Origin: Halanaerobium saccharolyticum
GTDB lineage: Bacteria > Bacillota > Halanaerobiia > Halanaerobiales > Halanaerobiaceae
Reading direction: 5' to 3'
Length of the DNA stretch: 64,000 nucleotides
Assembly (NCBI RefSeq): GCF_003053565.1
Contig: NZ_QAXS01000001.1
Coordinates: 62,001 to 126,000, forward strand
The translations under genes were made by a program, and so were the position numbers. Position 1 is the stretch's first letter, and every line of letters begins with the position of its first letter. Under the pieces are notes generated by a model, which did not search any database, was not told where the DNA came from, and saw only the letters and a program-made list of their open reading frames with translations. This document shows, one piece after another, positions 21,926 to 48,438 of the stretch.

Positions 21926-22108
21926 GTTTATGTTTGTTTATGAGCGTTTATGTACACGCACCGTGAACCTGTCGGATTTTGTCGCCGCCAGTAGCAGAGA
22001 AAGTAAATACAGCAGAGAAGTCCCTTTCTGAGGGGCTTTTTTCTTTATCAGCAGCAGTAATTTAAGCAGATATTTCGACATAAATCGGGTGGTTCACGGT
22101 GCATGTAC
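21926..22108. repeat. inverted-repeat element, full copy X1
   Basis: Left arm 21952-21984 (GTACACGCACCGTGAACC.. ending TTTTGTCG) and right arm 22076-22108 (CGACATAAATCGGG.. ending CACGGTGCATGTAC) are imperfect reverse complements. Outside the left arm, three GTTTATG heptamers at 21926, 21936 and 21946 are spaced exactly 10 bp. The recR terminator lies in the loop. Related copies occur at 40083 and, as a half, at 41454. Confidence 0.75.
22018..22043 (+). terminator. intrinsic terminator after recR
   Basis: AGTCCCT-TTCTG-AGGGGCT forms a 7-bp hairpin with one G-T pair, followed by TTTTTTC. It ends the dnaX-ybaB-recR transcript. Confidence 0.75.
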
Positions 22109-39749: not shown

Positions 39750-39796
39750 TAAAAAAACTTGAATTAGAATAAAATATTAAATTTAAAAACTGTGAT

Positions 39797-40046
39797 CAGG
39801 GAAAGTAATTAAAAATATTTATCTCAGCGAAGCGGGGTTAGTGAGAGCCCGTTGGTAGATATTTTAATGAAGTTCCCCTGTGAGTTGTCAGCTGAACAAA
39901 AAAGTAAGCCTGTACCGGCCGTCTACCGTTATCCCGACAGATTATAGGAGTTATTACTAATTCCCGTAATTAATGAGTGGGCTTTTTAGCCAAAAAGACT
40001 GGTACCACGAGTATACAACCCTCGTTCTTTAATTAGAACGGGGGTT
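39797..40046 (+). promoter_or_regulatory. T-box leader, Phe (UUC) specifier, before pheA
   Basis: The Stem I base pairs CAGGG (39797) with CCCCTG (about 39875-39880). AGTAA lies on the 5' side of the specifier loop and GAAGTTC on the 3' side, with specifier TTC at 39873-39875. The next helix is AAAATAT/ATATTTT, topped by a distal part with GCGAAGC and GTGAGAGCCC. The T-box sequence ACTGGTACCACGAG (39998-40011) can pair with an uncharged tRNA ending in ACCA. The terminator is AACCCTCGTTCT/AGAACGGGGGTT plus T6 (40017-40046). Uncharged tRNA-Phe should allow read-through to prephenate dehydratase. Confidence 0.88.
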
Positions 40047-40082
40047 TTTTGCATTTTGACAGGGTTTTACAAAAACTGACAA

Positions 40083-40176
40083 GCACCGTGAACCTGTCGG
40101 TTTATGTCATAATAAATCGAAATAATTATTTTAATCAAGTTGTCTGACATAATTCGGGTGGTACACGGCGCTGTGC
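40083..40176. repeat. inverted-repeat element, full copy X2
   Basis: Left arm CACCGTGAACCTGTCGG then TTTATGTCA, and right arm TGACATAATTCGGG then TGGTACACGGCG, are imperfect complements around a ~40-bp AT-rich loop, extended by GCAC/GTGC. It lies between the T-box terminator and pheA, so it is transcribed into the 5' leader. Confidence 0.72.
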
Positions 40177-40194
40177 ATTTAAAGGAGTGAGTAG

Positions 40195-41061
40195 ATGAGT
40201 AATTTAGAATATGGATATTTAGGACCACCAGGAACATTTAGTGAGCAGGCGATCTCTAACTACTGTGCCCGTTATGGTGGCAGTACAACTGCCTGTGGCT
40301 CAATTAGAGACATTGTAGAGGCGGTAACAGCAGATCGGGTTGACCTCGGACTGCTGCCGCTTGAGAATTCACTGGAGGGATCGGTAAATTTAAGTCTTGA
40401 CCTTTTATATCAGCATCCAGAACTTAAGCTTTACCGGGAGATAGTCCTTCCAATCGAGCAGTACCTGCTGGCCCGGCCGGGGGTTAAAAAAGAAGAGATT
40501 AAGGAAATTTACAGCCACCCTCAGGCAATTGCGCAGTCAGGTGATTACCTGGCCAATGAATTTAAAGATGCAAAAATCATTTACACAGATAGTACTGCGG
40601 CAGCAGCAAAAAAAGCGCTTGCAGACAGAAACCGAGCTGCTGTGGGCTCAATCAGACTGGCTGAGATTTATGAACTGGAAATTATGGCAGAAAATCTGCA
40701 GGGAGATTTGCCGAATGCGACCCGCTTTGTCCTGGCAGCAAAAAAGGATAAGGATTTGGGTCCGAATAACCATCTGGGAGAAGCGGCAGCAAGTGACTTT
40801 AAAACTTCTATTATCTGCGCACCAAAAGTCAATGAAGCTGGAGTTCTGCACCGGATACTGGGGAAATTTGCTGAAGAAAATATTGATCTGACAAGAATTG
40901 AATCCCGCCCGAGCAGACAGCGGCTGGGAGAATATATTTTCTATATTGACTTAAAAGGCTGCAGCAGTGATCAGCATCTGAGTTCAGCCCTGGAGGAGGT
41001 AAAAAAGATATCATCATATTTTAGACTTTTGGGTTCCTATCCGAAGACAGTAATCGAGTAA
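40195..41061 (+). CDS. pheA: prephenate dehydratase
   Basis: A 288-residue enzyme that converts prephenate to phenylpyruvate, the Phe branch. The catalytic domain has YLGPPGTFSEQAI, LPLENSLEGSVN and the TRF motif in NATRFVLAA (about residues 175-183). The C-terminal ACT domain (GVLHRILGKFAEENIDLTRIESRPSRQ) gives Phe feedback control. No chorismate mutase domain is fused. AAGGAG precedes the ATG by nine bases. Expression is probably controlled by the Phe T-box upstream. Confidence 0.96.
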   Translation: MSNLEYGYLGPPGTFSEQAISNYCARYGGSTTACGSIRDIVEAVTADRVDLGLLPLENSLEGSVNLSLDLLYQHPELKLYREIVLPIEQYLLARPGVKKEEIKEIYSHPQAIAQSGDYLANEFKDAKIIYTDSTAAAAKKALADRNRAAVGSIRLAEIYELEIMAENLQGDLPNATRFVLAAKKDKDLGPNNHLGEAAASDFKTSIICAPKVNEAGVLHRILGKFAEENIDLTRIESRPSRQRLGEYIFYIDLKGCSSDQHLSSALEEVKKISSYFRLLGSYPKTVIE

Positions 41062-41164
41062 AAATTAACTGTGATTGGCTAGAAATCTGGTGAAAAGTTA
41101 TTCAAAAGCGAGCTGAAAGTTAGAATTAAAATTGAATATTTGGGCGAAAAAGCGGAAATTTTAT

Positions 41165-41193
41165 TTGACAGAACTAAAATTGCCTGCTATAAT
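41165..41193 (+). promoter_or_regulatory. sigma-A promoter of the aroF1 operon
   Basis: TTGACA (41165-41170), 17-base spacer, TATAAT (41188-41193). Transcription would begin near 41200, only about 30 bases before the T-box Stem I, which shows that Stem I cannot extend far upstream. Confidence 0.85.
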
Positions 41194-41228
41194 ACTCATT
41201 AAATAAATAATGTCACCCAAAAACTTTG

Positions 41229-41430
41229 AAAGAGGACCCAGTAAGCCACAGGCTGAAATACACCTCTTGAGTTGCCAGCTGAAAGTTAAACGAGTAAGCT
41301 TAAATGGCCGTCAGCCGTCGTTACCCGGTGCGGAAGTGTTGGCTTCCAGTAGAGATAATCTGTTATTTAATGAGATTAAAACAGGTGGTACCGCGATTTC
41401 AATCGCCCTGACTAAGGGGCGATTTTTTGT
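41229..41430 (+). promoter_or_regulatory. T-box leader, Tyr (UAC) specifier, ultrashort Stem I
   Basis: Stem I spans only about 40 bases: AGAGG (41231-41235) pairs with CCTCT, AGTAA lies on the 5' side of the loop and TGAAATACA on the 3' side, with specifier TAC at 41259-41261. GCC-ACA-GGC is all that remains above it. The following GAGTTGCCAGCTGAA matches the Phe T-box (GAGTTGTCAGCTGAA). The T-box is AGGTGGTACCGCG (41383-41395), and the terminator is AATCGCCC/GGGCGATT plus T run (41401-41429). It should sense uncharged tRNA-Tyr and control aroF1-tyrA and downstream genes. Confidence 0.87.
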
Positions 41431-41453
41431 ATTTTTAGAGAAAAAATATTTAT

Positions 41454-41514
41454 TTCGACAAAAAATGACAGGTTCACGGTGCGTGCACATGAACAATCAC
41501 AAACGAACATAAAC
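41454..41514. repeat. half copy X3 of the inverted-repeat element
   Basis: TTCGACA..GACAGGTTCACGGTGCGTGCACATG is the reverse complement of the X1 left arm. On its - strand, heptamers GTTTATG, GTTTGTG and GTTCATG lie exactly 10 bp apart (ending at 41508, 41498 and 41488), as in X1. It lies between the Tyr T-box terminator and the aroF1 ribosome-binding site. Confidence 0.72.
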
Positions 41515-41547
41515 AAAAAAGCATTTTAGTAGAGAGGAGAATTAATT

Positions 41548-42597
41548 ATGATAGCAGTATTAAAAAGAGATGCAAGTCAGGAAGATAAGGATCAGGTAAT
41601 AGAGGTAATTCGAGGTGAAAATTTTGAGGTTCACCCAATTCAGGGAGTAGAAAAAACTGTAGTAGGTGTTCTGGGTGATCCGGCAAGAAAGTCAAATTTG
41701 AAGGAAAAGTTAGAGACCATGGGGGCCGTAGAAAAAGTTGTGCTGATTTCCGATCCCTATAAATTAACCAGCTGGAATTTTAAGCAGGAAAAAACGGTCA
41801 TTGACCTCGGTGATGGAGTTAAGGTCGGTGGTGATGAGATGACGGTGATGGCCGGTCCCTGTTCGGTGGAAAGCAGAGAACAGATTATTGAGACAGCCAA
41901 AATAGTGAAGGCCGGAGGAGCTCAGATACTGCGTGGTGGAGCCTTTAAGCCGCGGACATCCCCATATTCTTTCCAGGGGCTGGGAGAAGAGGGCCTGAAG
42001 CTGATGGCAGAGGCCAGAGAAGAAACTGGACTGAAGATAGTAACTGAACTGATGGATATTGAACATATTGATGTGGTCTGCAAATACACTGATATTATCC
42101 AGATCGGGGCCCGCAATATGCAGAACTATTCTCTTTTAAAGGAGATCGGAAAACTTGATAAGCCAGTAATGCTCAAGCGGGGGATGGCAGCGACAATCAA
42201 GGAATGGCTGCTGGCGGCTGAATATGTAATGAATAACGGTAACCATAATGTAATTTTATGTGAAAGAGGGGTTAGAACCTTTGGTGAAGAAACTCGCAAT
42301 ACAATGGATTTAAGTTCAATTCCTTTAGTTCAGCAGTTAAGTCACCTGCCGGTTATTGCAGACCCAAGTCATGGAACCGGCCGCTGGGAGTTAGTAATTC
42401 CGGTTGCCAGAGCAGCAGTCGCTGTGGGTGCAGATGGAATTATGGTTGAGGTTCACCCTGATCCCCAGAATGCTCTTTCTGATGGTCCCCAGTCATTGAA
42501 GCCTAAAAACTTTAATTTAATGATGGATGAACTTAAAGCAATTAATAATTCTCTGCACACATTTGAATCCAGAGAAAGAAAAATTGCTTATGCCTAA
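41548..42597 (+). CDS. aroF: 3-deoxy-7-phosphoheptulonate synthase (first copy)
   Basis: A 349-residue enzyme that joins phosphoenolpyruvate and erythrose 4-phosphate, the first step to chorismate. An N-terminal ferredoxin-like regulatory domain (MIAVLKRDAS, residues 1-75) precedes the barrel, as in the Thermotoga-type class I-beta enzymes. Metal and substrate motifs are [62 protein letters not shown] and VEVHPDP. GAGAGGAG precedes the ATG. It is the first gene after the Tyr T-box and a close paralogue of the gene at 46106. Confidence 0.95.
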   Translation: MIAVLKRDASQEDKDQVIEVIRGENFEVHPIQGVEKTVVGVLGDPARKSNLKEKLETMGAVEKVVLISDPYKLTSWNFKQEKTVIDLGDGVKVGGDEMTVMAGPCSVESREQIIETAKIVKAGGAQILRGGAFKPRTSPYSFQGLGEEGLKLMAEAREETGLKIVTELMDIEHIDVVCKYTDIIQIGARNMQNYSLLKEIGKLDKPVMLKRGMAATIKEWLLAAEYVMNNGNHNVILCERGVRTFGEETRNTMDLSSIPLVQQLSHLPVIADPSHGTGRWELVIPVARAAVAVGADGIMVEVHPDPQNALSDGPQSLKPKNFNLMMDELKAINNSLHTFESRERKIAYA

Positions 42598-43606
42598 ATT
42601 CGAAAAAATTGCTGTTGTCGGGATTGGCCTGATTGGGGCCTCCCTGGCAGCAGCTTTAAAAAAATCCGAATCGAAGCTGGAGCTTACAGGAGTTGACAGC
42701 TGTGCAGAGACTATCAGCAAAGCAGAAAAGATGGGGATTATTGATCAGGGATTTACAGAAATAGCAGCTAACTTAGAAGATCAGGATCTGATTTTTATTG
42801 CTGTTCCGGTAGCAGCCATCCCGGCTGTAATGAGAGAGATTAAAGCTGGAGGCAGCAGTCAGCAGCTGCTGGTTGATGCAGGCAGCACTAAAAAGGAAGT
42901 AATGCTGGAGGCGGAAGAAATTTTAAAGGACAGCCCGAAAATTTTTATCGGCGGTCATCCGATGGCAGGCTCACATAAATCAGGGATTGACTGGCATGAT
43001 CCGGAGCTCTTTAAAGGTGCCCCTTTTATTTTAACACCCTGGCTGGATCAGAGCCAGCAGGAAGAGGAAGAAAAGATCTTGAAAGATAGCTCACTATTTG
43101 ATCTTTTAGAAACTTTTTCAAAATCAAGAATTGATTCGGCCGAAGATCTAGATCAGGATGAGGCTGAGCTGAAAAACTTAGTTCAAAAAAAAGAACTGCT
43201 GCAGCAGCTAAAAGAACTGATAGGAAAAATTGGAGCCAGAGTCCATATTATTTCGGCAGCAGAGCACGACCACTGCACAGCCTACTTAAGCCACCTGCCG
43301 CATCTATTATCATCAGCACTGGTAAATTTAAGCCAGCAGCAGGATTTTAAAGGTGAATTTTTTGAACTTTCAGGAAGCGGCTACCGGGATATGACCAGAA
43401 TTGCAGGCAGCTCAGCTGAACTCTGGCAGGATATTATACTCTCTAACCGGGAAAACCTGGCAGAATTGATTGGAAATTACATAGAGGAACTGCAGGAACT
43501 GCAGCATGATCTGGAAGCCAATGAGCAGGATAAAATTTATAATTTTTTAGCAAAAGCAGCAGAGATTAAAACTGGGGCAGAAAATAAAAGTGATACTGAA
43601 AAATAG
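42590..43606 (+). CDS. tyrA: prephenate dehydrogenase
   Basis: A 338-residue NAD-dependent enzyme that converts prephenate to 4-hydroxyphenylpyruvate, the Tyr branch. The NAD loop is VGIGLIGASLA (about residues 10-20), then GGHPMAGSHKSGI and AAEHDHCTAYLSHLPHLLSSAL carrying the catalytic histidine. A charged insert (about residues 160-215, LETFSKSRIDSAEDLDQDEAELKNL) is longer than usual and looks helical and acidic. There is no ACT domain. The ATG at 42590 overlaps the aroF1 end by eight bases; the frame extends upstream to 42527 but that part is inside aroF1 and does not resemble the family. Confidence 0.93.
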   Translation: MPKFEKIAVVGIGLIGASLAAALKKSESKLELTGVDSCAETISKAEKMGIIDQGFTEIAANLEDQDLIFIAVPVAAIPAVMREIKAGGSSQQLLVDAGSTKKEVMLEAEEILKDSPKIFIGGHPMAGSHKSGIDWHDPELFKGAPFILTPWLDQSQQEEEEKILKDSSLFDLLETFSKSRIDSAEDLDQDEAELKNLVQKKELLQQLKELIGKIGARVHIISAAEHDHCTAYLSHLPHLLSSALVNLSQQQDFKGEFFELSGSGYRDMTRIAGSSAELWQDIILSNRENLAELIGNYIEELQELQHDLEANEQDKIYNFLAKAAEIKTGAENKSDTEK

Positions 43607-43705
43607 CTTATAATTGAAACTATATTAATGGAGAAAATTAATGCAGAAACTAAAATCAAGCTAAGCTAGAAGCAAAAAAGAAGAGAGAAATGAGGAGGAA
43701 ATATA

Positions 43706-44995
43706 TTGTTTAAAGTTAATCCAGCAGATAAAATCAGTGGTGAAATTAGGGTGCCGGGAGATAAGTCGATTTCCCACCGCTCCCTGATTTTAGCATCAAT
43801 AGCAGCAGGAGAAAGTAAGATAGAGGGGCTTTTAGAGGCGGAAGACTGCCTGAGCACAATGGGGATTATGCGCGATTTAGGAATTGAGATTACCAAAGGA
43901 GGGGCGGGTAAATACACCGTTCAGGGCAAAGGTCTTGACGGACTTGAAGAGGCAGATGATGTTTTAGACTGTGGTAATTCAGGGACATCAATGCGGCTTC
44001 TGGCCGGACTTTTAGCCTCTCAGGATTTTTATTCAGTGCTGACAGGAGACCACTCGCTGCGCAAAAGACCGATGCAGCGGATTATTGGACCACTTTCCAA
44101 AATGGGAGCTAAAATATGGTCCCGCCGGGACGGACTAGCCCCACTGAGTATTAAGGGCCAACAACTGGAGGCGATGGAATACAAACTTCCTGTTGCCAGT
44201 GCCCAGCTTAAGTCTTCAATTTTACTGGCAGCTTTAAAAACTGAAGCCGAAACGGTAATCATTGAACCGGCAGTTTCCAGGGATCACACCGAGCGGATGC
44301 TCAAAGGTGCCGGGATCGATCTGGAGATTTTAGAGGATAGGATTATTCTAAAGCAGGCAGCAGAGAGAAAACTTAATCCATTTGAGATAAATGTTCCGGG
44401 AGATATTTCTTCGGCCGCCTTTTTTATTGCAGCTGGACTTTTGGCAGCCGAGGGTGAGCTCTTAATTAAAAATGTCGGCATCAACCAGACCCGCAGTGGC
44501 TTTTTAGAAGTAGTTGAGGCCATGAATGGTAAAATTGAACTTTTAAATAAGAGAGATCAGGGAGGAGAACCAACTGCAGATATTCTGGTTAAACCCTCAG
44601 ACTTAAAAGGGACAGAAGTCAGTGGTGAAGTAATTCCCCGCCTAATTGATGAGATCCCCATAATCTCTGTGCTGGCAGTTTTTGCTGAAGGTAAAACAGT
44701 GATCAAAGATGCAGAAGAATTGAGAGTTAAGGAAACAGACCGGATCAAAGCAGTGGTCACAGAATTTGAAAGACTGGGAATAGAAATTACAGAAAATGAG
44801 GACGGGATGGAAATCAGCGGCCCCCAGCCAGTAGAGGGTGGAATTGAAGTTGAAAGCTATCATGACCACCGGATTGCAATGTCGCTGGCGGTACTGGCTT
44901 TAAATTCTAAAAGAGGAATTACAATTAACGGCAGTGAAATTATAGCTACATCTTTTCCTAATTTTAAAGAATTACTAAAAGAGGTGATTGGATGA
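43706..44995 (+). CDS. aroA: 3-phosphoshikimate 1-carboxyvinyltransferase (EPSP synthase)
   Basis: A 429-residue enzyme that adds enolpyruvate to shikimate 3-phosphate. Signatures are IRVPGDKSISHRSLI (about residues 15-29), LDCGNSGTSMRLLAG, the glycine loop region GDHSLRKRPMQRII, and RVKETDRIKAV in the C-terminal half, plus YHDHRIAMS. Length is standard. The TTG at 43706 follows GAGGAGG. It overlaps hisC by four bases (ATGA), so the two are coupled. Confidence 0.96.
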   Translation: MFKVNPADKISGEIRVPGDKSISHRSLILASIAAGESKIEGLLEAEDCLSTMGIMRDLGIEITKGGAGKYTVQGKGLDGLEEADDVLDCGNSGTSMRLLAGLLASQDFYSVLTGDHSLRKRPMQRIIGPLSKMGAKIWSRRDGLAPLSIKGQQLEAMEYKLPVASAQLKSSILLAALKTEAETVIIEPAVSRDHTERMLKGAGIDLEILEDRIILKQAAERKLNPFEINVPGDISSAAFFIAAGLLAAEGELLIKNVGINQTRSGFLEVVEAMNGKIELLNKRDQGGEPTADILVKPSDLKGTEVSGEVIPRLIDEIPIISVLAVFAEGKTVIKDAEELRVKETDRIKAVVTEFERLGIEITENEDGMEISGPQPVEGGIEVESYHDHRIAMSLAVLALNSKRGITINGSEIIATSFPNFKELLKEVIG

Positions 44996-46104
44996 AAAAG
45001 ATAATTGATGATATTTCAGCCGGTGTTAAAGAGATGAACCGCTATCAGGCCGGCAAAAGCATAGAAGAGGTACAGGAAGAATACGGACTGGAAAAAATAG
45101 TTAAACTTGCTTCTAATGAAAATCCACTGGGACCAGCAATTCAGGTGATTGATACAATACAGTCAGAGGCTAAAAATGTCTGTCTCTATCCAGATTCAGA
45201 CAGCAGGGAGCTTAAGACAGCTCTGGCGGAAAAGTATCAGCTGGCAGAGGAAAAAATATTTCTGGGCAATGGCTCCGATGAAATTTTAGACCTATTAATG
45301 ACTTTGATTTTAAAGCCAGGGGACGAGGTTATTCAGGCAGATCCAGCTTTTATCAAATATGAGCTGGCAGTAAAGTCCAGGGGCGGCAGCAGTGTCAAGG
45401 TTCCACTTGATCAAAATCACAGACATGATCTGCAGGCGATGGAAGCTGAAATCAGCGATCAGACAAAGGCAGTTTTTATCTGTAACCCTAATAATCCAAC
45501 CGGAACCATGCTCGAGCGGGAAGAGATAGAAGACTTTTTGGAAAAGGTGTCAGAGGAAGTACTGGTAATAGTCGACCAGGCTTATCAGGAGTATATCACA
45601 GCCGAAGATCCCTTTGATGGAGTTGAGCTGCTGGAAAAATATCCAAACCTAATGCTGATGCGGACATTTTCTAAGGCCTACGGTCTGGCCGGAATGCGGA
45701 TAGGTTATGCCCTGGCTGATCCAGAACTAATTGATTATTTAAATAGAATTAGAGGCCCCTTTAATGTCAACCGCCTGGCGCAGAAGGCTGCAGTGACAGC
45801 TTTAGAGTCAGAATCACATCTGGAAATCTGTCAGAATTTAAATAACAAAGAAAAAGAATTTCTCTATCAGAAGTTTGAAGAACTGGGACTTGATTATATA
45901 GAAACTGAGGCCAATTTTATGATGGTTGACACCGGGATGCCGGCCGCTGAAGTCTTTAAAGAGCTGCAGCAGCGGGGAGTAATTATTAGACCGGGCCATC
46001 AATTTGGGATGGAAAGCTGGATCAGAGTAACCATCGGGACCAGAGCTGACAATGAATATTTTATCAGGAACTTAAAAAAAGTATTAGCAGAGGGGAATGA
46101 GTAA
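44992..46104 (+). CDS. hisC: histidinol-phosphate/aromatic aminotransferase
   Basis: A 370-residue PLP enzyme of fold type I. KLASNENPLGP near residue 38, the NPNNPTGTM motif near 160, and the PLP lysine in RTFSKAYGLAGMRIGYA near 225-240. In this operon, away from his genes, it probably transaminates phenylpyruvate and 4-hydroxyphenylpyruvate, the last step to Phe and Tyr, but it may also serve histidine synthesis. This double use is known in other bacteria and is an inference here. Confidence 0.9.
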   Translation: MKKIIDDISAGVKEMNRYQAGKSIEEVQEEYGLEKIVKLASNENPLGPAIQVIDTIQSEAKNVCLYPDSDSRELKTALAEKYQLAEEKIFLGNGSDEILDLLMTLILKPGDEVIQADPAFIKYELAVKSRGGSSVKVPLDQNHRHDLQAMEAEISDQTKAVFICNPNNPTGTMLEREEIEDFLEKVSEEVLVIVDQAYQEYITAEDPFDGVELLEKYPNLMLMRTFSKAYGLAGMRIGYALADPELIDYLNRIRGPFNVNRLAQKAAVTALESESHLEICQNLNNKEKEFLYQKFEELGLDYIETEANFMMVDTGMPAAEVFKELQQRGVIIRPGHQFGMESWIRVTIGTRADNEYFIRNLKKVLAEGNE

Positions 46105-46105
46105 T

Positions 46106-47158
46106 ATGATAGCGGTATTAAAAAGAGGGGCAACTAAAGATGATGAACAGAAGGTAATTGAGTTAATTGAAGAAGCTGGTTTCTCAGCCCATCCGGATAC
46201 CGGGGCGGAAACTACGATTGTCGGAGTTGTTGGAGTTGCACCTGAAAAAAAGGTTAACCTAAAAGAGAAACTGCAGGTTATGAGCTGTGTGGAAAAGGTA
46301 GTAGTGATTTCTGACCCCTATAAGCTGACCAGCTGGAACTTTAAACAGGATAAAACAGTAATTGACCTCGGCGATGGCGTTAAGGTCGGTGGAGATGAGC
46401 TGACAGTGATGGCCGGCCCCTGCTCGGTAGAAAATGAAGAGCAGATGCTGGAGACTGCCAGGGTGGTCAAGGAAGCGGGAGCTAAAATACTTCGCGGTGG
46501 TGCCTTTAAGCCGAGAACTTCTCCCTATTCTTTTCAGGGGCTGGGTGAAGAAGGTCTTAAGTTATTAGCCAAGGCCAGAGAAGAAACCGGGCTCAAGGTA
46601 ATTACAGAATTGATGGATATTGAGCATATAGATGTTGTCTGCAAATATACTGATATTATCCAGATTGGAGCCCGCAACATGCAAAACTATGCTCTTTTAA
46701 AGGCAATTGGGAAGCTCGATAAACCGGTAATGCTTAAAAGAGGGATGTCCGCTACCATCAAAGAGTGGCTGCTGTCAGCAGAGTACGTGATGAACGAGGG
46801 CAACCATCAGGTTATTTTATGTGAAAGAGGAGTTAGAACTTTCGGTGAAGAAACCAGAAATACAATGGACTTAAGTTCAATTCCTTTAGTTCAGCAGTTA
46901 AGTCACCTGCCTGTGATTGCTGATCCGAGCCACGGAACCGGACGCTGGGAGTTAGTAATCCCGGTTGCCAGAGCGGCAGCCGCAGTTGGCGCAGATGGAA
47001 TTATGGTTGAAGTCCACCCGCATCCGGAAAATGCACTTTCTGATGGACCACAGTCTCTAAAGCCTGATAACTTTAGGCTGCTGATGGAAGAATTGAATGC
47101 AATTACAACTTCTCTCAAATCATTTAAAGCAAGAGAAAAGAAAATTGACTATAAATAA
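46106..47158 (+). CDS. aroF: 3-deoxy-7-phosphoheptulonate synthase (second copy)
   Basis: A 350-residue paralogue of the 41548 gene with the same ferredoxin-like N-terminus and all catalytic motifs intact ([49 protein letters not shown]). Divergence is greatest in the regulatory N-terminal 70 residues ([19 protein letters not shown] versus GVEKTVVGVLGDPARKSN). Some catalytic stretches are nearly identical even at DNA level. The ATG at 46106 is chosen because AGGGG is ten bases upstream and the N-terminus then matches the first copy; the ATG at 46097 overlaps the hisC end. The two copies may respond to different amino acids. Confidence 0.93.
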
Positions 47159-47238
47159 TGTAGGTTAAATTTCATCAAACACATTAGATTAAAGCAGCAA
47201 ATATAAATTGAGAAGTAGAGTATAAAGGAGGAAAAATT

Positions 47239-48438
47239 TTGTTTGAATATATAACAGCTGGAGAATCACACGGGCCGCGGCTGACAGCAATAATTAAGAG
47301 TCTGCCCGCTGGCCTTAAAGTAGAAGTTGAGCAGATAAATGAACAGTTATTTAGAAGGCAGCAGGGTTATGGACGCGGTGGTCGAATGAAAATAGAGAGT
47401 GACCGGGCAATAATCAATTCCGGGTTGAGGCATCAGGAAACTCTTGGGACCCCCTTAAGTATGACAATTGAAAATAAGGACTGGCAGAACTGGGTTGAGG
47501 CAATGGCTCCTGATAAAGAGCGGGGAGATGATGTGGAAGCCCTGACAAATCCCAGACCCGGCCATGCTGACCTTCCCGGAGCTTTAAAATACAACCACCG
47601 GGATCTGCGCAATGTCCTGGAGCGGGCAAGTGCTCGCGAAACTGCAGCCAGAACTGCAGTCGGAGCAGTGGCCAGGCAGTTTTTAAATGAATTTAATGTC
47701 AATATTTACAGTCATGTTGTCCAGATTGGTAACTTAAAAAGCGAGACCTGGACAGATCTAAAAGCAAGAGATCCGGAGCGTTTCAAAAATGAGGCTGAAA
47801 TCAAAAAATATTTTGCCGAGCTTGACAAAACAGCCCTCCGCTGCGGAGACGAGGCTAAAACAGAAGCGATGAAAAATTTAATTGATTCCTGGCGGGCCAA
47901 TGGAGATTCTGTGGGAGGAGTTTTCGAAATCGTGGTTACCGGTCTGCCGGTCGGACTGGGCAGCCATGTTCACTGGGATTTAAAACTGGAAAGTAAACTG
48001 GCAGCTCAGCTGATGGGCATCCAGGCGATCAAAGGGGTAGAAATCGGCTCCGGATTTAAGGGTGCAGGTTTACCGGGTTCCAAGGCTCATGATGAAATAT
48101 ACTATGATCTTGACCGCGGTTTTTACCGGAGTTCCAACCAGGCAGGTGGAATAGAAGGTGGAATGAGCAATGGCGAAGAACTGATTATCCGTCTGGCCAT
48201 GAAACCTATTCCTACTCTGGCCAAGGCGCTGCATTCTGCTGATATAATCTCTAAAAAGGAAACTACAGCTGCCAAAGAGCGTTCTGATGTCTGTGCTGTT
48301 CCAGCAGCCAGTATAGTTGGGGAAGCGGTTACTGCTTCAGTGCTGGCAAAAAGTACAGCTGAGAAATTCGGCGGCGACAGCATCAGAGAAATCAAACGCA
48401 ATTATGACGGTTATTTAGAGCAGTTAAGAAAGTTTTAA
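47239..48438 (+). CDS. aroC: chorismate synthase
   Basis: A 399-residue FMN-dependent enzyme that makes chorismate from EPSP. Signatures are TAGESHGPRLTAII (about residues 5-18), RRQQGYGRGGRMKIE, RPGHADLPGALKY, RASARETAARTAVGA, and the C-terminal GGMSNGEELIIRLAMKPIPTL. Full length. The TTG start has AAGGAGG seven to eight bases upstream. An 80-base gap follows the second DAHP synthase; no terminator is evident, so it may belong to the same operon. Confidence 0.96.
   Translation: MFEYITAGESHGPRLTAIIKSLPAGLKVEVEQINEQLFRRQQGYGRGGRMKIESDRAIINSGLRHQETLGTPLSMTIENKDWQNWVEAMAPDKERGDDVEALTNPRPGHADLPGALKYNHRDLRNVLERASARETAARTAVGAVARQFLNEFNVNIYSHVVQIGNLKSETWTDLKARDPERFKNEAEIKKYFAELDKTALRCGDEAKTEAMKNLIDSWRANGDSVGGVFEIVVTGLPVGLGSHVHWDLKLESKLAAQLMGIQAIKGVEIGSGFKGAGLPGSKAHDEIYYDLDRGFYRSSNQAGGIEGGMSNGEELIIRLAMKPIPTLAKALHSADIISKKETTAAKERSDVCAVPAASIVGEAVTASVLAKSTAEKFGGDSIREIKRNYDGYLEQLRKF

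What the first reader, a model, noticed from the sequence alone, without database searches (positions are those of the whole stretch)
41229..41430. Transcriptional Tyr T-box with an ultrashort Stem I
Stem I has only a base helix, the specifier loop (AGTAA opposite UAC-A) and a 3-bp cap. The apical part that contacts the tRNA elbow is missing, and the promoter position excludes an upstream extension. Ultrashort Stem I T-boxes are known from actinobacterial ileS leaders that act on translation. This one precedes a DAHP synthase, reads Tyr and has an intrinsic terminator, an apparently different combination.
Basis: partly seen in the sequence, partly recalled or inferred. Interest (0 to 1): 0.65.

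Follow-up and report, generated by a model that had tools for sequence, protein, structure and literature searches.

The report
Transcription-type tyrosine T-box lacking elbow arm
In Halanaerobium and related bacteria, the RNA switch that senses tyrosine shortage in front of the aromatic amino-acid genes has lost the arm that normally grips the tRNA's elbow, yet keeps a transcription terminator, a combination that current T-box models do not expect, and nobody has tested it at the bench.

Summary
Window 41217-41428 is a T-box leader (RF00230, 67.3 bits, E 6e-14; below Rfam's cutoff of 93) in front of a DAHP-synthase (aroF) operon. It has a 12/12 promoter, K-turn, Stem II, pseudoknot hairpin, antiterminator and intrinsic terminator. 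Only 11 nt separate AGUA from the specifier-side GAA; the genome's ten other T-boxes have 55-68 nt. The specifier UAC and the bulge UGGU fit both tRNA-Tyr genes (GUA anticodon, ACCA end).

It is not a decayed copy. Seventeen short-Stem-I leaders exist across four families of the order, before aroF, aroA or NhaC-type transporter genes. All have promoters and terminators, and one reads Phe. Among the eleven closest, base helix and cap show compensatory changes. Long Tyr/Phe T-boxes coexist in the same order, once in the same genome. A rough tree hints at more than one truncation. No short form was seen elsewhere in 398 sampled genomes of the phylum.

Classes III/IV are mostly translational, and the elbow-binding arm is described as essential in transcriptional T-boxes. 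So this is a new variant of a known kind. No binding or termination data exist; two key earlier surveys could not be read.

The parts
41165..41193 (+). sigma-70-type promoter TTGACA-17-TATAAT with TG before the -10; start site expected near 41200
   Evidence: 12 of 12 consensus; identical hexamers and spacing in the ten orthologous aroF leaders
41222..41229 (+). K-turn 5' side: C-stem AAC, loop UUU, G-A (pairs with GA-GUU at 41269-41273)
   Evidence: sequence; conserved
41230..41268 (+). short Stem I: base helix AAGAGG/CCUCUU (41230-41235 with 41263-41268) enclosing the specifier loop and the cap
   Evidence: compensatory changes at two pairs; RNAfold gives both helices
41240..41253 (+). AGUAA (specifier loop 5' side, 41240-41244) and 3-bp cap GCC-ACA-GGC (41245-41253) in place of the 55-68 nt apical arm
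   Evidence: cap third pair C-G/U-A covaries
41259..41261 (+). specifier UAC (Tyr), after UGAA-A and before A41262
   Evidence: register as in the Phe (UUC) T-box at 39783-40031; both tRNA-Tyr genes carry anticodon GUA
41274..41308 (+). Stem II with S-turn motif (GAA opposite AGUA); GCC/GGC and GCU/AGC helices
41309..41330 (+). Stem IIA/B region; hairpin GCCG/CGGU with CGUUA in the loop
   Evidence: paired in all eleven close leaders, one-sided G-U/A-U change; Rfam alignment
41352..41381 (+). Stem III region (GAGAU-AAUCU...AGAUU-AA)
   Evidence: sequence; conserved
41382..41410 (+). antiterminator: CAGG, bulge UGGUACC (41386-41392), GCGAU/AUCGC, CCUG
   Evidence: -7.9 kcal/mol; UGGU is complementary to the tRNA-Tyr 3' end ACCA
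41401..41428 (+). intrinsic terminator hairpin AAUCGCCCU-GACUAA-GGGGCGAUU plus U run; shares 41402-41409 with the antiterminator
   Evidence: -14.5 kcal/mol
41548..42597 (+). aroF, DAHP synthase (3-deoxy-7-phosphoheptulonate synthase), first gene of the regulated operon; followed by tyrA, aroA, hisC-like, second aroF, aroC (to 48438)
   Evidence: NCBIfam NF006421, 504.5 bits; operon ORFs
39783..40031 (+). for comparison: canonical long-Stem-I Phe T-box in front of pheA
   Evidence: RF00230, 104.7 bits; gap 61 nt

Best explanation
It is a tRNA-Tyr-sensing transcriptional T-box whose Stem I has been cut back to K-turn, base helix, specifier loop and a 3-bp cap. Uncharged tRNA-Tyr should pair by its anticodon with UAC. 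With no elbow contact, Stem II and its S-turn, held in place by the K-turn and the IIA/B pseudoknot, should clamp the codon-anticodon duplex from the side, as shown for Class III T-boxes. The free 3' ACCA end should pair with UGGU, stabilise the antiterminator and let RNA polymerase read into aroF-tyrA-aroA-hisC-aroF-aroC. Charged tRNA cannot do this, so the stronger terminator forms. Shown here: sequence, promoter, folds, conservation, covariation, the matching tRNA. Inferred: tRNA binding, the Stem I-II clamp, and switching during transcription.
For: RF00230 end to end, E 6e-14. Gap 11 nt against 55-68 nt in ten siblings. Orthologous short leaders before aroF in ten relatives with conserved promoter and terminator. 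Covariation: 98.8% of cells paired, three pairs with two-sided changes, 4 of 500 shuffles reach that. Six further short leaders in three other families and in another Halanaerobium, before NhaC-type transporters, aroA and (Phe) aroF, all with terminators. tRNA-Tyr GUA with A discriminator. Antiterminator and terminator mutually exclusive. K-turn and Stem II, which short Stem I T-boxes are reported to need, are kept (PMC7583486). Aromatic biosynthesis genes downstream fit Tyr.
Against: No expression, binding or termination data. PMC7583486 section 6.2 says disabling the elbow-binding motif impairs transcriptional T-boxes. Two relatives (G007, G010) have AUUA instead of AGUA in the Stem II S-turn. 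The discriminator's RRRxG motif is imperfect (GAGAU), though long T-boxes of the order share this. Most sequences compared are close relatives, so conservation is partly shared descent.
Confidence: 0.85

Rival explanations
1. A decayed or crippled T-box: the arm was lost and the leader is now only a constitutive or weak attenuator.
For: Score below the Rfam cutoff; function of the lost arm is reported essential in transcriptional T-boxes; the cap is only 3 bp.
Against: Specifier, K-turn, T-box bulge and terminator are invariant or nearly so across the orthologues while the cap loop drifts, with two-sided changes in base helix and cap. Short forms recur before other genes and for Phe.
Confidence: 0.08
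2. A sub-hypothesis of the best explanation: it works, but another element replaces the elbow contact, such as a K-turn-binding protein, the high-potassium cytoplasm of this salt-tolerant order, or a peripheral RNA contact.
For: The trait is confined, in the sample, to Halanaerobiales, and may have arisen more than once there. Salt accumulation in this order is from memory, not tested. K-turn proteins may aid T-boxes (PMC7583486).
Against: Ten other T-boxes in the same cytoplasm keep the long arm. No extra conserved element shows in the alignment.
Confidence: 0.25
3. A hidden arm upstream or in read-through transcripts from pheA provides the missing contact.
For: No terminator was found between pheA and this promoter, so longer transcripts may exist.
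Against: The missing arm is inserted between AGUA and GAA in all long T-boxes; here those are 11 nt apart. Only about 20 AU-rich nt lie between the expected start site and the K-turn. Promoter position is conserved.
Confidence: 0.03
4. Translational control, as in most short-Stem-I T-boxes.
For: Classes III and IV mostly act on translation (PMC10482949).
Against: A strong terminator with U run shares bases with the antiterminator. The likely ribosome site (about 41533-41541) lies more than 100 nt beyond it. All 17 short leaders have terminators.
Confidence: 0.03

Closest known systems
Class I transcriptional T-box (Bacillus subtilis tyrS type)
   Same: K-turn, specifier in an internal loop, Stem II with S-turn, IIA/B, antiterminator/terminator, amino-acid gene downstream
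   Different: no distal double T-loop (elbow-binding) arm: 11 nt instead of 55-68 nt between AGUA and GAA
Class IV T-box (Actinomyces odontolyticus ileS type, after PMC10482949)
   Same: no elbow-binding arm; specifier in a side bulge between two Stem I helices; Stem II present
   Different: acts, by its anatomy, on transcription; Tyr (once Phe) instead of Ile; Halanaerobiales; the cap is only 3 bp
Class III 'ultrashort' T-box (Nocardia farcinica / Mycobacterium ileS)
   Same: no elbow-binding arm; Stem II and pseudoknot expected to carry the binding
   Different: there the specifier is in an apical loop and control is translational
Long-Stem-I Tyr and Phe T-boxes of the same order (e.g. L237, L256, L275, L279, L269)
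   Same: same specifier frame, Stem II, IIA/B, discriminator and terminator style
   Different: keep the apical arm; in G013 a long and a short Tyr T-box coexist

Membership tests
T-box leader (RF00230) | full-length match to the covariance model | tested here: met
   model 1-219, 67.3 bits, E 6.2e-14, though below the gathering score of 93
T-box leader (RF00230) | specifier codon matching a tRNA of the cell, and UGGN matching its 3' end | tested here: met
   UAC with two GUA tRNA-Tyr genes; UGGU with ACCA
T-box leader (RF00230) | antiterminator exclusive with a terminator or sequestrator | tested here: met
   bases 41402-41409 shared; -7.9 against -14.5 kcal/mol
T-box leader (RF00230) | response to uncharged cognate tRNA | not testable with these tools
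   needs in vitro transcription
Class I T-box | long Stem I with distal double T-loop (elbow) motif | tested here: not met
   53 model positions missing; 11-nt gap
Class I T-box | intrinsic terminator | tested here: met
Class III T-box | specifier in a 5-6 nt apical loop | tested here: not met
   specifier lies in an internal loop under a covarying cap
Class IV T-box | intermediate Stem I without elbow motif, specifier in a side bulge between two helices | tested here: met
   definition in PMC10482949
Class IV T-box | translational platform (usual, not strict) | tested here: not met
   terminator in all 17 leaders; likely ribosome site more than 100 nt downstream
Class IV T-box | direct sequence comparison with an actinobacterial Class IV leader | not tested
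   none was fetched

The most novel reading that the evidence does not exclude
Halanaerobiales have repeatedly evolved a further T-box architecture: a Class IV-like, elbow-independent Stem I driving transcription termination for Tyr and Phe. It would show that the Stem I-Stem II anticodon clamp alone captures tRNA fast enough to beat RNA polymerase.
Probability: 0.5. Interest if true: 0.7.

Novelty: new variant of a known kind. Interest (0 to 1): 0.55.

Why it matters
The standard view (PMC7583486, section 6.2) is that transcriptional T-boxes need the elbow-binding arm to load tRNA before polymerase reaches the terminator, while translational ones can do without. A natural, conserved set of transcriptional T-boxes without that arm makes the kinetic argument directly testable, with long and short Tyr T-boxes in one genome (G013) as a built-in control. 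It also shows that Rfam's cutoff hides a whole subgroup, and offers a shorter, simpler transcriptional T-box for structural work.

Tried and rejected
After a helix filter only Halanaerobium/Halanaerobiaceae records kept both helices convincingly, but the scan is a partial sample, not a census. 2) R1 covariance search over 398 phylum genomes gave 22 genomes with hits; read by eye, every hit outside the order is a canonical or partly matched long T-box. Strict filters scored only 9 candidates per genome, so sensitivity is limited. 3) Two structural patterns over the same 398 genomes: the first finds only two leaders, both in this group; the two hits of the second carry no T-box motif downstream. 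4) MAFFT misaligned Stem I of the distant short leaders, so covariation was counted only on the eleven close ones. 5) The cap is unpaired at its third position in G006 and shorter in G009 and G013. 6) RNAfold of Stem I alone is not unusual for its composition (z -1.25), so single-sequence folding is weak evidence; the comparison carries the case.

Full report
WHAT IS THERE. The region is a T-box leader on the + strand. Rfam RF00230 matches end to end at 41217-41413 with 67.3 bits (E 6.2e-14), but the family cutoff is 93 bits, so a default scan reports only the pheA T-box at 39783-40031. The alignment skips 53 model positions at the top of Stem I. From the sequence: promoter TTGACA-17-TATAAT (41165-41193, 12 of 12); K-turn; base helix AAGAGG/CCUCUU; specifier loop AGUAA opposite UGAAAUACA; cap GCC-ACA-GGC; Stem II; IIA/B hairpin; Stem III; antiterminator CAGG-UGGUACC-GCGAU...AUCGC-CCUG; terminator AAUCGCCCU-GACUAA-GGGGCGAUU-UUUU. 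Antiterminator and terminator share 41402-41409 and fold at -7.9 and -14.5 kcal/mol.

SPECIFICITY. The pheA T-box has GAA-G-UUC-C in the same frame, so GAA-A-UAC-A reads Tyr. The genome has two tRNA-Tyr genes with anticodon GUA and 3' end ...CCTCC-ACCA, matching UAC and UGGU. The operon downstream is DAHP synthase, prephenate dehydrogenase, EPSP synthase, a HisC-type aminotransferase, a second DAHP synthase and chorismate synthase, which is what a Tyr switch should control.

HOW SHORT. AGUA and the specifier-side GAA are 11 nt apart; in the other ten T-boxes of this genome the distance is 55-68 nt. The elbow-binding distal motif therefore has no room. The cap is real though small: its third pair is C-G in some species and U-A in others, and two pairs of the base helix change on both sides in the sister genus. 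Over 22 pairs, 98.8% of cells pair. Three pairs have two-sided changes, reached by 4 of 500 shuffles, and sliding the partner by 1-3 columns drops pairing to 26-52%. These sequences are related, so the shuffle count is not a probability.

DISTRIBUTION. Using the aroF protein and a covariance model of the short form (R1), I found the short Tyr T-box before aroF in nine further Halanaerobium species and a sister genus. Short Tyr T-boxes also stand before aroA in G020 and G026, and before an NhaC-type transporter (TIGR00931-like) in G009, G014 and G024. A short Phe (UUC) one precedes a DAHP synthase in G020. All 17 have a promoter (10-12 of 12), a gap of 10-14 nt, a UGGU bulge and a hairpin with U run. 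Long Tyr or Phe T-boxes occur in the same order, for example before a tryptophanase/tyrosine phenol-lyase-like gene in G013 and G012, before a hisC-like gene in G018 and G021, and before aroF in family f4. G029 has an intermediate form.

EVOLUTION. On a tree of the 3' part of 29 leaders, holding the short ones as one clade is disfavoured (AU p 0.006) and the label changes five times. The alignment is short, most forks are open and the group was named after seeing the data, so I read this only as a hint of repeated truncation.

OUTSIDE THE ORDER. Among 398 genomes (266 genera) of the phylum, a structural pattern for K-turn, base helix and short gap finds only two, both in this group, and the covariance model finds no short form elsewhere. 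The short form is thus characteristic of Halanaerobiales in this sample, not proven absent elsewhere.

MECHANISM. Short-Stem-I T-boxes of Actinobacteria bind tRNA through the Stem I codon plus the Stem II S-turn, with K-turn and pseudoknot as scaffolds (PMC7583486, PMC10482949). All these parts are present here. I therefore infer the same clamp, coupled to a terminator. The ribosome site lies more than 100 nt beyond the terminator, so translational sequestration is unlikely. Read-through from pheA may add a second input, since no terminator was found between pheA and this promoter.

KNOWN OR NEW. By the four-class scheme Stem I is Class IV-like, not 'ultrashort' Class III, while the platform is that of Class I. 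Classes III and IV are said to be mostly translational, and the review states that the elbow motif is essential in transcriptional T-boxes. I found no paper in the library describing this combination or T-boxes of Halanaerobium aromatic genes, but two central surveys are not held. Verdict: a new variant of a known kind, well supported by comparison, functionally untested.

Noticed in passing
window 40083-40098 (-), 41467-41482 (+), 21958-21973 (-), 22087-22102 (+): A dispersed intergenic repeat with core GACAGGTTCACGGTGC: 4 copies in the window (0.1 expected) and 13 near-exact core matches in the genome, with few or none in most relatives. One copy follows each of the two T-box terminators, in opposite orientation.
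   Followed up: partly
window 39783-48438: Tandem control: a Phe T-box and pheA, then the Tyr T-box with its own promoter and the aro/tyr operon. No terminator was found between them, so transcripts from the Phe promoter may pass through the Tyr T-box too.
   Followed up: partly
window 41548-42597 and 46097-47158: Two DAHP synthase genes (about 81% identical proteins) in one operon, a duplication shared by several relatives; the second has no T-box of its own.
   Followed up: partly
L277 (G020:C4:105195-105296): Short-Stem-I T-box reading Phe (UUC) before a DAHP synthase, in the same genome as a short Tyr one.
   Followed up: yes
L274 (G029:C18:27478-27606): Phe T-box with Stem I of intermediate length (GUCUC/GAGAC helix and a simple loop), a possible step between long and short.
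   Followed up: no
L256 (G013:C11:5454-5571) and L237 (G012:C35:48602-48749): Long Tyr T-boxes before a tryptophanase/tyrosine phenol-lyase-like gene, an unexpected target for starvation control.
   Followed up: no
G008 (2309262-bp single contig, same genus): This relative has a shorter DAHP synthase match and no short Tyr T-box, so the trait is not universal in the genus.
   Followed up: partly
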